Positions 24,288 to 27,136 of a stretch of DNA of 51,744 bases are shown here, one piece after another. The notes beneath the pieces are model-generated. The model was not told the origin of the DNA and did not search any database. It saw only the letters and a list, made by a program, of their open reading frames with translations. A program made the position numbers and the translations under genes. Position 1 is the first letter of the stretch; each line of letters opens with the position of its first letter. Source of the DNA: an uncultured SAR86 cluster bacterium (GTDB taxonomy: Bacteria > Pseudomonadota > Gammaproteobacteria > Magnimaribacterales > D2472); NCBI GenBank assembly GCA_902623535.1, contig CACNUA010000007.1, positions 1 to 51,744 on the forward strand, in the 5' to 3' direction.

Positions 24288-24363
24288 GCCCAGATAGCTC
24301 AGTCGGTAGAGCAAAGGACTGAAAATCCTTGTGTCGGTGGTTCGATTCCACCTCTGGGCACCA
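24288..24363 (+). tRNA. tRNA-Phe (GAA)
   Basis: A complete 76-base tRNA with encoded CCA. The acceptor stem GCCCAGA pairs with TCTGGGC, the D arm contains AGCTCAGTCGGTAGAGC, the anticodon loop CTGAAAA holds GAA at 24321-24323, and the T arm has GGTGG-TTCGATT-CCACC. Sequence is close to E. coli tRNA-Phe. Its 3' half is duplicated 2.77 kb downstream, so this gene is the insertion site of the restriction-modification islet. Confidence 0.98.
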
Positions 24364-24371
24364 TTCCTAAA
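24314..24371 (+). repeat. Left attachment-type repeat (tRNA-Phe 3' half)
   Basis: This 58-bp stretch, from the anticodon stem to eight bases beyond CCA, matches 27079-27136 at 54 of 58 positions in direct orientation. The differences are at 24317, 24327, 24340 and 24366. Repeats covering a tRNA 3' end are the normal footprint of site-specific integration into a tRNA gene. Confidence 0.9.
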
Positions 24372-24400
24372 GGGTTTTTCGAGAGTTTTAGATTTTAAGT

Positions 24401-24438
24401 ATATGCACAGTTATGCACAGTAGTTTTAGTGTGCATAT
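24401..24438. repeat. Iterated TATGCACA motifs at left end of the islet
   Basis: Two tandem copies of TATGCACAGT (24402-24411 and 24412-24421, exact 10-bp period) are followed by an inverted copy, TGTGCATA (24430-24437). One copy, TTATGCACA at 24411-24419, also fits the DnaA-box consensus TTATNCACA. The cluster lies 30 bases inside the left repeat and 40 bases before the nuclease gene. It could be an operator, recombinase arm sites or DnaA sites. Confidence 0.7.
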
Positions 24439-24477
24439 TTATATAGAATCAATTAAATAGTCTTAAATCTTAAAAAA

Positions 24478-25548
24478 ATGAAGTATAGATTCAAAGAAGA
24501 CGAAATATATCAGATGCTTGATTTCGCTAAAGAGTATCATCTTGAACCTACTAAGGGACCTCAAAGAAGAACTGTTGGGGGTTCAGGAGGTTTTGGAGAT
24601 GAACTTGATAGGTTCTTGATAAAAAACTTAACTGAAATTGGTGCATGTAGGATTATTGAGAGTTATTCAGACAATAAAGTGCTATCACCAGACCTCAAAA
24701 TCTATACAAATAGAACAGTTGCAGAAAAAAAAGATGCGGACATTACTAATGTTTATGATAAAAATAAGATGGAAGATAGAGAACCTAATTTTAAGATCGA
24801 GATTAAAAAAACATCTGCAAAAGATCATTGGTTTCATGCCAGAGAAGAACAAATACATGATGATTTAAAAAATAATGTTCGAGGTTATATGGTGCATGTA
24901 TCCTTAGAATTTAATGATGATAAAAATAAAAAACAAAGGGATATTACAGGTTCTGTTTTAAAGAAAATAATCAAAAGTAATAGATTCCATTTAAATGAGT
25001 TCTCAGATATTGAAGATTTGGAAGCGAATATTGAGTTCGCATATAGTTATAGTGATCTAAAAGAACATGGTTTTTATTTTCCTAGCGGACTCATAATGCC
25101 AAGATCAGATTTTCGAGAGATGAGACATGGTCCATTCAGATCAAATGGTGAACCTAGTTCACAATATGAACATGTAAGTGATTTTAATGGCAAGGAAATA
25201 TTAAAAATGAAAACTGAGAAAAATACCATTGGTGATCATGATATTAGTCTGTTTAATAGATGGGTCGTAGAAGGAAATTTTTCAATTTACAAAAAAAATA
25301 ATGGTAATGAATTTATATATGCAAAAGAAGAAACAATAATGGAGAATAAAAATCTTGGAAGATATCTTTTAGAAAAAAATAAAACATATAAGTTTCATTT
25401 AATAAATTCATTGCCTAGAAGATCAGGAGAACCTTTAAAAGGAAACGATGAGTACTCATTCTCAAGACAAAAATTAAAAAATTTACAAAATGATAAAGAT
25501 GATTTTTCAGTTGAATCTGTATGTAAAGAAATAGCAATCGGAATATGA
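24478..25548 (+). CDS. Putative type II restriction endonuclease
   Basis: Protein of 356 residues that I do not recognise by family. The restriction role is inferred from its 4-bp overlap with a complete C5 cytosine methyltransferase gene. A possible PD-(D/E)xK core exists: acidic residues Asp86/Asp88 in KKDADITN, followed by Glu108-Ile-Lys110 in FKIEIKKT, at the end of a predicted strand. A Gly-rich GGSGGFGDELDRF segment lies at residues 34-46. No helicase, methylase or membrane segment is seen. The AT-rich, AGA/AAA-rich coding resembles the partner gene. The ATG has only a weak ribosome site. Confidence 0.68.
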   Translation: MKYRFKEDEIYQMLDFAKEYHLEPTKGPQRRTVGGSGGFGDELDRFLIKNLTEIGACRIIESYSDNKVLSPDLKIYTNRTVAEKKDADITNVYDKNKMEDREPNFKIEIKKTSAKDHWFHAREEQIHDDLKNNVRGYMVHVSLEFNDDKNKKQRDITGSVLKKIIKSNRFHLNEFSDIEDLEANIEFAYSYSDLKEHGFYFPSGLIMPRSDFREMRHGPFRSNGEPSSQYEHVSDFNGKEILKMKTEKNTIGDHDISLFNRWVVEGNFSIYKKNNGNEFIYAKEETIMENKNLGRYLLEKNKTYKFHLINSLPRRSGEPLKGNDEYSFSRQKLKNLQNDKDDFSVESVCKEIAIGI

Positions 25549-26543
25549 AAAATAAGAACTATACAGTCGGAGGTTTATTCTCAGGTGTTGGAGGTATTGA
25601 ACTTGGTTTTGAAAAAGCAGGTTTCAATGTTCTCTGGGCAAATGAAATTGATAAAAACTCATGCATTACCTATAGAAAAAACTACTCACATAAATTGTAT
25701 GAAGAAGACGTAAGAAAAATTAAAGGTAAAGATCTTAAACCTGTAGATGTTTTATGTGGCGGTTTTCCATGTCAGGCATTTTCAATTGCAGGATATAGAA
25801 AAGGTTTTGATGATGATAGAGGAAATGTATTCTTTGAGATCATTAGACTCATTAATGAATTAAAAAGAAAACCAAAGGTTTTATTTTTAGAAAATGTAAA
25901 AAACTTTAGATCTCATGATAAGGGTAGAACTTTTCAAACCGTCGTTAATATTATTCAAGATAATGGTTATTCTGTATTTTTTGATGTGTTAAATACATGT
26001 GACTACACTCAAATACCTCAAAATAGAGAAAGAACTTTCTTGATCTGTTTCAGAGGCGAACATAATTGGGAATTTTCAAGAAAGCAAAATTTGGCTAGTA
26101 GAGAGTTTGCTAAAAGGTTTCCTCCCAAAAGAGTTAAAAGTAATAAAGGCATCCAAGAGTTCCTTGAATCAGGCGAAGTTATGGAGGACTTCTATTACAG
26201 ACAAGATAAATATATGTATCCAGAACTCAGAAAGACCATGAAATCAAAAGATACTCTCTATCAATGGCGGAGACAATATGTAAGAGAAAATAAAAATAAC
26301 AGATGCCCTACTCTAACTGCAAACATGGGTACAGGTGGTCATAACGTACCTCTTGTTGTAACAGATGATGGTTACAGGAAATTAACTCCTAGAGAATGTT
26401 TCAACTTCCAAGGATTCCCAAAAGGTTTCAAATTACCAAACGAGATGGCAAATTCTCATCTATATAAACAAGCAGGTAATGCCGTATCAGTTCCTCTGAT
26501 TAAGGTTTTAGCAAAAGCTATCAGAGAATCTTTAAGTCTATAA
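25545..26543 (+). CDS. DNA (cytosine-5-)-methyltransferase of a type II system
   Basis: Transfers methyl from SAM to cytosine C5 at an unknown recognition sequence. The ordered motifs are all present in 332 residues: I, LFSGVGGIELGFEKAGF (about 11-27); IV with catalytic Cys in GGFPCQAFS (about 77); VI ENVKNFRS; VIII QIPQNRERTFLICF; a short target-recognition region (about 180-255); IX PTLTANMGTGGHNVPL; and X QAGNAVSVPLI. The size suggests a short target. The gene overlaps the upstream nuclease by 4 bp, so expression of the pair is coupled with the nuclease first. Confidence 0.95.
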   Translation: MKNKNYTVGGLFSGVGGIELGFEKAGFNVLWANEIDKNSCITYRKNYSHKLYEEDVRKIKGKDLKPVDVLCGGFPCQAFSIAGYRKGFDDDRGNVFFEIIRLINELKRKPKVLFLENVKNFRSHDKGRTFQTVVNIIQDNGYSVFFDVLNTCDYTQIPQNRERTFLICFRGEHNWEFSRKQNLASREFAKRFPPKRVKSNKGIQEFLESGEVMEDFYYRQDKYMYPELRKTMKSKDTLYQWRRQYVRENKNNRCPTLTANMGTGGHNVPLVVTDDGYRKLTPRECFNFQGFPKGFKLPNEMANSHLYKQAGNAVSVPLIKVLAKAIRESLSL

Positions 26544-26840
26544 ATAATTATCAGTTGTGTATTTAATTTGATATTTATCACATAACTCTCTCAAGTCGGC
26601 AACAGTAAATCTTTCCTCAAAGGTAAACCCCTTGAAGAAACAACAAAGAATAAATTTCGCTACATCCTTTTGATGAATCATCATAAAGTATTCATATTCA
26701 TCAGTTCCCCAGAATTGCTTTACTCCTTCACCAAGATCATGCTCAGTAAAATGTAAGTTACCTTTATCATCCCAATCAACATGAACATTGTGATTAATCT
26801 TCCCTTGAGGAAGTTCGTATTCGCATTTAAATACTTGCAT
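26538..26840 (-). CDS. Hypothetical protein in the restriction islet
   Basis: Unrecognised 100-residue protein, acidic and rich in aromatic residues, starting MQVFKCEYELPQGK. No membrane segment, signal peptide or helix-turn-helix is evident. I choose the ATG preceded by GGAGA six bases upstream; an in-frame ATG 21 bases earlier is possible. It is convergent to the methyltransferase and overlaps its end by 6 bp. Its place between the restriction pair and the right repeat makes it an islet gene. Roles such as accessory restriction factor, anti-phage protein or element maintenance are only guesses. Confidence 0.7.
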   Translation of the reverse strand: MQVFKCEYELPQGKINHNVHVDWDDKGNLHFTEHDLGEGVKQFWGTDEYEYFMMIHQKDVAKFILCCFFKGFTFEERFTVADLRELCDKYQIKYTTDNYL

Positions 26841-27078
26841 ATTTTTCTCCATAAGAAACATACCCGGAATTGAGTATGTAGATGTGAGTAATGGAATTTG
26901 AAATAAGAAGATATTTCTTTCTTTACACTTACTTATATAGGGATTTTTTAATGAAATTCAATGTAATATGTGTTCACAATCTAGTAAGATCTTTCATCTT
27001 TCTCATACAAAATATGAACACTAATATGAACACTAGAGTCTGAAACATGCATATCTATGGGGTTTCTATTTTCGTGAC
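26841..27078. other. Non-coding right end of the islet
   Basis: With the right repeat and the spacer after it, this forms a 329-base stretch without a gene (26841-27169). It must contain the promoter of the small minus-strand gene. It also holds a palindrome TGTGTTCACA (26969-26978) and the tandem ATATGAACACTA repeat (27012-27035). I see no tRNA, terminator hairpin or ORF in it. Confidence 0.6.
27012..27035 (+). repeat. Tandem ATATGAACACTA motifs at right end of the islet
   Basis: Two exact 12-bp copies, 27012-27023 and 27024-27035, end 43 bases before the right attachment-type repeat. The first ten bases (ATATGAACAC) resemble the left-end iteron ATATGCACAG at 8 of 10 positions. An inverted partial copy, GTGTTCA, lies at 26970-26976. 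This parallels the left end and suggests binding sites for one protein at both ends. Confidence 0.6.
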
Positions 27079-27136
27079 AAGAACTGAAAATTCTTGTGTC
27101 GGTGATTCGATTCCACCTCTGGGCACCATTTCTAAA
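27079..27136 (+). repeat. Right attachment-type repeat (tRNA-Phe fragment)
   Basis: Partial copy of tRNA-Phe from the 5' side of the anticodon stem through CCA and eight bases beyond, 54 of 58 identical to 24314-24371. Two differences (27082 and 27092) change one anticodon-stem pair from G-C to A-T together. A third (27105) gives an A opposite C at the top of the T stem. It lacks the acceptor and D-arm 5' half, so it is not a functional tRNA. Confidence 0.9.

What the first reader, a model, noticed from the sequence alone, without database searches (positions are those of the whole stretch)
24401..27035. Related iterated motifs just inside both ends of the islet
The left end has tandem TATGCACAGT x2 at exact 10-bp period plus an inverted copy. 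The right end has tandem ATATGAACACTA x2 plus an inverted partial copy. Left and right units share 8 of 10 bases (ATATG-C/A-ACA). The layout resembles arm-type recombinase sites, iterons or end-recognition sites. One left copy is also a perfect TTATNCACA DnaA box, raising a possible link to replication of an excised form.
Basis: partly seen in the sequence, partly recalled or inferred. Interest (0 to 1): 0.65.

Follow-up and report, generated by a model that had tools for sequence, protein, structure and literature searches.

The report
Recombinase docking sites bounding mobile islets
Short repeated DNA words sit at set places just inside both ends of many small DNA inserts next to a tRNA gene in the ocean bacterium group SAR86, and they look like docking sites for a DNA-inserting enzyme that most of the inserts do not carry themselves.

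Summary
The window belongs to SAR86. The islet (24372-27078) sits at tRNA-Phe, bounded by a 58-nt duplicated core, and is absent in two congeners. It carries a C5-methyltransferase, an unidentified gene that may be its nuclease, and no integrase. I collected 30 such islets with varied cargo from 26 genomes. Tandem pairs occur just inside the left end in 15 of 30 and the right end in 18 of 30 (about 2 expected each), at near-fixed distances from the core. The unit differs between islets, but the two ends of one islet tend to share it (27 elements, permutation p = 0.00002; 7 of 27 do not). Two integrase-bearing elements show the same layout with their own units, and their integrases have an arm-DNA-binding domain. 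Best reading: arm-type sites of lambda-like tyrosine integrases, with the enzyme supplied in trans for nearly all islets. The window's 8-of-10 match is an exception: the islet is a hybrid of two donors with different units. The DnaA/iteron reading is not supported. A similar right end was found at tRNA-Ile. The helper integrase was not found; binding and excision are untested.

The parts
24288..24363 (+). tRNA-Phe(GAA), the integration target; its 3' part is regenerated by the left end of the islet
   Evidence: ARAGORN; directly followed by chromosome in congeners G001 and G002
24314..24371 (+). left copy of the duplicated 58-nt core (attL side)
   Evidence: direct repeat D1
24402..24411 (+). 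left arm unit, copy 1, TATGCACAGT
   Evidence: shuffle test
24412..24421 (+). left arm unit, copy 2, TATGCACAGT; overlaps the DnaA-box-like TTATGCACA at 24411-24419
24430..24437 (-). inverted left copy TGTGCATA; with copy 2 it can form a hairpin
24478..25548 (+). 356-aa cargo gene, perhaps the restriction endonuclease (by position only; no family match)
25545..26543 (+). C5-cytosine DNA methyltransferase, cargo
   Evidence: PF00145, E 2.4e-86; TIGR00675
26538..26861 (-). 107-aa protein of unknown function, found in many islets
   Evidence: relatives in 38 of 203 order genomes; no Pfam, NCBIfam, PHROGs or PADLOC match
26835..26966 (.). zone of the hybrid junction: G143-like to 26966, G112-like from 26835
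26970..26978 (-). inverted third right copy, GTGTTCACA; a counterpart is seen in 13 of 20 right ends
27012..27023 (+). right arm unit, copy 1, ATATGAACACTA
27024..27035 (+). right arm unit, copy 2, ATATGAACACTA
27036..27078 (+). spacer between right arm pair and core, partly conserved (consensus CTCTGAAACATGCA..TTATAGGGTTT..CGAGTC)
   Evidence: alignment of 20 right ends
27079..27136 (+). right copy of the core (attR side), displaced tRNA-Phe 3' fragment, 54 of 58 identical

Best explanation
The motifs are arm-type binding sites of lambda-like tyrosine integrases, part of the attachment sites of a small integrated element. In the circular form they would flank the core (anticodon stem-loop and 3' half of tRNA-Phe): the left cluster on one arm (two direct sites and one inverted), the right cluster on the other (two direct sites and one inverted further out). 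The N-terminal domain of the integrase would hold the arm sites while its catalytic domain exchanges strands in the anticodon loop. Seen in the sequences: duplicated core, empty sites, near-fixed geometry, persistence with different cargo, left-right agreement of the unit, the same layout in two integrase-coding elements, and exchange of islet parts between genera. Inferred: integrase binding, excision, and supply of the enzyme in trans, since 29 of the 30 tRNA-Phe islets appear to lack an integrase. The window islet is a hybrid with ends of two unit types and a worn right core, so it may no longer be mobile.
For: Core duplication and empty sites. Pairs at left ends in 15 of 30 and right ends in 18 of 30 islets, about 2 expected each. 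Right pair at about -64/-52 from the core in 17 of 20 chosen right ends, an inverted third site in 13 of 20. Left sites at +24/+34 and inverted +47 in six islets. Right unit matches its own left end at 8.22 of 9 positions against 6.81 for other left ends, 27 elements, p = 0.00002. G005 and G070 elements encode integrases with PF00589 and PF13356 and carry matching pairs at both ends. 7 of 11 PF13356 integrase genes have a tandem pair around their start against 7 of 112 control ORFs. The GAACAST pair pattern: 12 of 15 matches in 203 genomes lie at tRNA-Phe right ends. Islet parts 88-97% identical to other genera whose aligned chromosome stretches are 66-78% identical.
Against: No binding or recombination was shown. 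No integrase with GAACAST-type arm pairs was found. 15 of 30 islets lack a left pair and 12 of 30 a right pair at the 8/9 level. 7 of the 27 elements with a right pair do not match their own left end better than about chance. In 4 of 11 PF13356 integrase genes no pair lies near the start. Three of the 15 pattern matches lie at one orthologous place without an islet. The window's two ends are not of one unit type.
Confidence: 0.76

Rival explanations
1. The sites are arm-type sites, but the integrase-less islets are fixed remnants of integrase-coding elements that lost the gene by deletion; nothing mobilises them now.
For: G005 shows that a tRNA-Phe element with an integrase exists; many islets lack one of the two clusters; the window's right core is worn and its ends differ in type.
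Against: Only one of 30 islets has the integrase, yet 20 elements keep own-end agreement of 8 or 9 of 9; islets of three species are 99% identical to each other, and islet parts cross genera, which suggests recent movement, though homologous recombination could also do it.
Confidence: 0.18
2. The repeats bind an excision factor (Xis/RDF) or another accessory protein rather than the integrase.
For: Accessory factors also bind short repeats near the core (PMC2951348 passages).
Against: The same unit sits on both arms, and tandem pairs lie beside integrase genes that have the PF13356 arm domain.
Confidence: 0.08
3. The left cluster is an operator of the cargo promoter, or its hairpin (copy 2 plus inverted copy) is a terminator behind the tRNA gene.
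For: Left ends fold into hairpins (80-nt windows, -12 to -26 kcal/mol, no shuffled control); in the window the cluster lies just upstream of the first gene.
Against: In four islets with a left pair the first predicted gene runs towards the cluster; neither reading explains the same unit in the right pair or the agreement of the two ends. A terminator role as a side function is not excluded.
Confidence: 0.04
4. Iterons and a DnaA box of a replication origin used by an excised form.
For: TTATGCACA at 24411-24419 fits TTATNCACA.
Against: TTATNCACA near the ends of only 4 of 40 elements, three times within GCACAGT-type units; no replication gene recognised among the three window genes.
Confidence: 0.02

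Closest known systems
Phage lambda-type attachment site with Int arm-type and core-type sites (PMC4880445, PMC2951348: passages; lambda site layout partly recalled)
   Same: Core flanked on both sides by short repeated sites, tandem on one arm; integrases of the family have an N-terminal arm-binding domain
   Different: Unit sequence varies from islet to islet; the islets themselves mostly have no integrase; binding not shown
Arm-type site pairs around tRNA cores of mycobacteriophages (PMC10865867, passages)
   Same: Pairs of putative arm sites flank a tRNA-gene core
   Different: Phages with their own integrase
Cis-mobilizable elements, e.g. ssrA islands without integration module in Dehalococcoides (PMC3146451, passages)
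   Same: Neither integration nor transfer genes, tandem islands, att cores retained
   Different: Serine-recombinase system in that case; no matching arm-site codes described in the passages seen
tmRNA-integrated islands with tyrosine integrase and restriction-modification cargo, I55 type (PMC12595487, abstract and opening)
   Same: Small island next to an RNA gene, direct repeats, defence cargo, no transfer genes
   Different: They encode their own intY; carried by jumbo phages, which is not known here
Tycheposons (PMC10872708, passages; original paper not in the library)
   Same: tRNA-bounded cargo elements of streamlined marine bacteria
   Different: 4-200 kb with a tyrosine recombinase; this islet is 2.7 kb without one
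MITEs and CALINs as hitcher elements (PMC11389934, passages)
   Same: Recombination sites kept, enzyme supplied by another element
   Different: Transposase or integron integrase instead of a tRNA-targeting tyrosine integrase

Membership tests
Attachment sites of a lambda-type (arm-binding) tyrosine integrase | Core identical at both junctions, with an empty site in relatives | tested here: met
   core 54 of 58 identical in the window
Attachment sites of a lambda-type (arm-binding) tyrosine integrase | Repeated sites of one unit on both arms at set distances | tested here: inconclusive
   Met in 20 of 27 relatives and allies with a right pair (own match 8 or 9 of 9); in the window itself the units are of two types, 8 of 10
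Attachment sites of a lambda-type (arm-binding) tyrosine integrase | A cognate integrase with arm-binding domain | tested here: inconclusive
   Present in the G005 and G070 elements; PF13356 not found in the window's genome, which is 71% complete
Attachment sites of a lambda-type (arm-binding) tyrosine integrase | Integrase binds the repeats | not testable with these tools
   Needs footprint or gel shift
Cis-mobilizable element | No integration or transfer genes of its own | tested here: met
   (no integrase among the three genes; two PF00589 matches in the genome, the number expected for XerC and XerD)
Cis-mobilizable element | Functional att sites, moved by a neighbouring or incoming element | not testable with these tools
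   Tandem islets exist in G039, G129, G018 and G116, movement not shown
Tycheposon | Tyrosine recombinase within the element, 4-200 kb | tested here: not met
   2.7 kb, no recombinase; definition from passages of PMC10872708
I55-type island | Own tyrosine integrase | tested here: not met
   definition from abstract
DnaA-dependent iteron origin | Conserved DnaA boxes or iterons with a replication gene | tested here: not met
   TTATNCACA near the ends of 4 of 40 elements; no replication gene recognised

The most novel reading that the evidence does not exclude
SAR86 holds an order-wide pool of integrase-free cargo cassettes, many with restriction-modification genes and some under 1 kb, that share a few tRNA targets but carry different address codes in their arm sites. 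Each code is written at both ends and would select which helper integrase can move the cassette; the window islet shows such codes being exchanged by recombination between islets.
Probability: 0.4. Interest if true: 0.78.

Novelty: new variant of a known kind. Interest (0 to 1): 0.62.

Why it matters
SAR86 is among the abundant, mostly uncultured bacteria of the surface ocean (recalled), and how such streamlined cells exchange phage-defence genes is not well known (recalled). The islets give a concrete mechanism to test, with defined ends, target and predicted binding sites. The agreement of left and right units would be a sequence-only way to pair integrases with the non-autonomous elements they could move, and to look for helpers in metagenomes.

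Tried and rejected
Viral contigs: the 107-aa protein, the tRNA core and the G005 integrase gave no relative. The GAACACT pair gave 3 stretches and the GAACAGT pair 17. In none of these 20 does a tRNA-Phe-like sequence lie within 1 kb of the pair; two (L145, L151) have a weak tRNA match further off. The AT-rich L148 was read and shows no integrase in the 2.2 kb held. The other 19 were not searched for integrases.

Structure of the 107-aa protein: mean pLDDT 75, no PDB fold match at E 0.001. The 356-aa protein was folded without an alignment and gave a useless model (pLDDT 34), so it was not searched. The small protein found in viral contigs: none.

Rows dropped and limits. The match list was cut, so more islets with short fragments may exist. 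G030, G121 and G015 have a right fragment but no complete tRNA on the same contig and are outside the 30 islets. Of the 27 right ends printed, 21 were aligned: G005, G030 and four ends of other designs were left out; G121 was also dropped for the model (20). The 20 ends were chosen for their design. The one-per-type tests use elements that I picked. The test over the 27 elements with a right pair (of 40) was not picked by outcome, but the 27 are not independent. Of the 23 strong hits of the right-end model, 20 are its training ends; 59 of 203 genomes have some match at E 0.01, and most weak ones were not examined.

DnaA origin, operator and terminator were considered and rejected as whole explanations (see rivals). 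Host XerC/XerD as the enzyme was considered but not tested.

Full report
What is there. The window comes from a SAR86 genome: the 107-aa protein of the islet has 24 related loci in named genome records, all titled SAR86 cluster bacterium, and the window is contig C7 of an assembly of 1.20 Mb in 36 contigs, 71% complete. A tRNA-Phe(GAA) gene lies at 24288-24363. A 58-nt stretch, its 3' part plus 8 nt, recurs at 27079-27136 with 93% identity. Between the two copies lie three genes: a 356-aa protein without family match, a C5-cytosine methyltransferase (PF00145, E 2.4e-86) and a 107-aa protein on the other strand. None matches a recombinase. In two congeners, G001 and G002, the tRNA-Phe is followed directly by the chromosomal sequence that in the window lies beyond the right core. 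So this is a 2.7-kb insertion at tRNA-Phe.

The observation. They are unlikely by chance in the window itself, and the comparison with relatives is decisive.

Relatives. A search with the tRNA-Phe sequence in 107 genomes of the family gave matches in 106, some of them only weak matches to other tRNA genes, and its match list was cut. In at least 26 genomes a complete tRNA-Phe is followed on the same contig and strand by one or two displaced 3' fragments, giving 30 islets of 0.6 to 9.5 kb; G039, G129, G018 and G116 have two in tandem. The cargo differs: several methyltransferases and putative nucleases, genes that look like type I restriction-modification, a desaturase-like protein with a regulator, small proteins with signal-like starts (read by eye, whose output was cut). 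Just inside the left end 15 of 30 islets have a tandem pair matching in at least 8 of 9 positions, with 2.07 expected; at the right end 18 of 30, with 2.20 expected.

Geometry. In 17 of 20 right ends chosen for this design the two direct units lie at -64 and -52 from the core; two are one nt further out and one (G087) nearer because its core start was set differently. An inverted third copy lies 95-118 nt from the core in 13 of 20, in 12 of them at -107 to -109. At the left end G006, G103, G112, G110, G129 and the second G171 islet have direct units at +24 and +34 and an inverted one at +47, counted from 8 nt behind the tRNA; G137 differs by one nt; the window and G143 have theirs 9-10 nt further in. 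A second left layout with CTGTTCA and TTGAACAG units occurs in G010, G071 and G087 and less clearly in G192. Other islets have other designs: a TAACACAC array at the left end only (G058, G042, G126, G133), or neither pair.

Left and right agree. The unit varies between islets, but the two ends of an islet mostly carry the same one. For 27 of 40 elements, those with a right pair, the right unit matches the own left end at 8.22 of 9 positions and other left ends at 6.81 (permutation p = 0.00002). Seventeen match at 9, three at 8 (the window, G005, G014) and seven at 6 or 7 (G046, G055, G039, G060, G026, and the tRNA-Ile elements of G009 and G040). With one element per unit type (n = 10, my choice) p = 0.00002.

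The window islet is a hybrid. Its first 48 nt and positions 1189-2595 resemble the islet of G143 (94% and 88%), while its last 240 nt are 97% identical to the end of the islet of G112. The aligned chromosome stretches are only 66-69% (G143) and 67-78% (G112) identical. The right core differs at 4 of 58 positions from the tRNA copy.

Who binds. Two elements of the order carry an integrase and the same end design. In G005 a 9.5-kb islet at tRNA-Phe encodes a 494-aa integrase and has AAGTCATCA twice at the left and three times at the right. In G070 a 12.8-kb element at tRNA-Val encodes a 454-aa integrase and has TGTACGGCA pairs at both ends. Both proteins match PF00589 and the arm DNA-binding domain PF13356; for the latter G070 is over the cut-off, and G005 is below it as a protein (23.8 against 27) and just over it in the six-frame search (27.3). 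PF13356 was found in 12 of 203 genomes of the order and not in the window's own. Of the 11 such genes that I read, 7 have an 11-12 bp tandem pair between -250 and +60 of their start, against 7 of 112 other ORFs of the same loci (Fisher p = 1.3e-5). This ties tandem pairs to arm-binding integrases.

The missing enzyme. Of the 26 islet-bearing genomes, 22 have at most two PF00589 matches, the number expected for XerC and XerD (not all their places were listed). The four with three are G005, where the third lies in the islet, and G014, G110 and G129, where it lies on another contig than the islet. In G071, G192, G087, G171, G162, G109, G009 and G040 no PF00589 match lies in or near the islet. A pattern search for GAACAST-type pairs found 15 single matches in 203 genomes: 12 at the right end of tRNA-Phe islets and 3 at one orthologous place without an islet. 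None of the 12 lies beside an integrase, so the enzyme for these units is unknown. The genomes are incomplete, so a resident helper cannot be excluded.

A second target. A sequence model of the right end without the core found 23 strong hits (E below 1e-8) in 203 genomes, each before a tRNA-Phe fragment; 20 of them are its training ends, and G162, G121 and G030 are new. Among weaker hits G040, G009 and G109 (E 1e-5 to 8e-5) lie before a tRNA-Ile fragment. In G109 both ends carry ATACACA pairs, and the two large genes may be a restriction-modification system (by eye). In G009 and G040 the ends do not match.

Judgement. Arm-type sites of lambda-like integrases explain position, multiplicity, orientation, near-fixed distance, left-right agreement and variation between islets together. 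An operator or terminator explains only the left cluster. Replication iterons or DnaA boxes are contradicted by the absence of the DnaA match in most relatives. Whether the islets still move, with an enzyme from elsewhere, is an inference.

Literature. The closest kinds are lambda-type attachment sites (PMC4880445, passages; PMC2951348, passages), pairs of arm sites around tRNA cores in phages (PMC10865867, passages), cis-mobilizable islands (PMC3146451, passages), tmRNA islands with restriction-modification cargo (PMC12595487, abstract and opening), tycheposons (PMC10872708, passages) and hitcher elements such as MITEs and CALINs (PMC11389934, passages). Searches for SAR86 with islands, integrase, mobile elements or restriction-modification and for tRNA-Phe islands of streamlined marine bacteria, seen as listings only, showed no paper on these islets; the library lacks most subscription journals.

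Noticed in passing
window 26538-26861 (-): The 107-aa protein is a recurring small gene of SAR86 islets (38 of 203 order genomes), also at places without tRNA-Phe; no family match; AlphaFold model of middling confidence without PDB match. Other small proteins (about 130 and 70 aa) also recur among islets.
   Followed up: partly
L195, L196, L197: Islets with a similar right-end design at a tRNA-Ile gene in G040, G009 and G109; in G109 the two ends carry the same ATACACA unit.
   Followed up: partly
L084:1791-14670: A 12.8-kb element at tRNA-Val duplicates the 5' half of the tRNA gene (positions 1-43), not the 3' half, and carries an integrase, an AlwI-like nuclease with methyltransferases, and a PvuRts1I-like nuclease.
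   Followed up: partly
L045, L046, L057, L060: A second islet design at tRNA-Phe (G058, G042, G126, G133): a TAACACAC array at the left end only, and a single gene that runs almost into the right core.
   Followed up: no
L056:3308-4063 and L058: A 0.75-kb islet is 99.3% identical between G129 and G043 and 99.5% over 573 nt in G039; near its right core lies an inverted repeat GAGCA..TGCTC.
   Followed up: no
window 24478-26543: The methyltransferase is shared with the islet of G143 (88% over 1410 nt with its surroundings), but no nucleotide match was found for the gene before it, as if the partner gene had been swapped.
   Followed up: no
right cores of G006, G143, G055, G026: The right core is flanked so that an inverted repeat GACACAAGGA-CTGAAAA-TCCTTGTGTC forms around the anticodon loop, which would suit a 7-bp strand-exchange region (read).
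   Followed up: no
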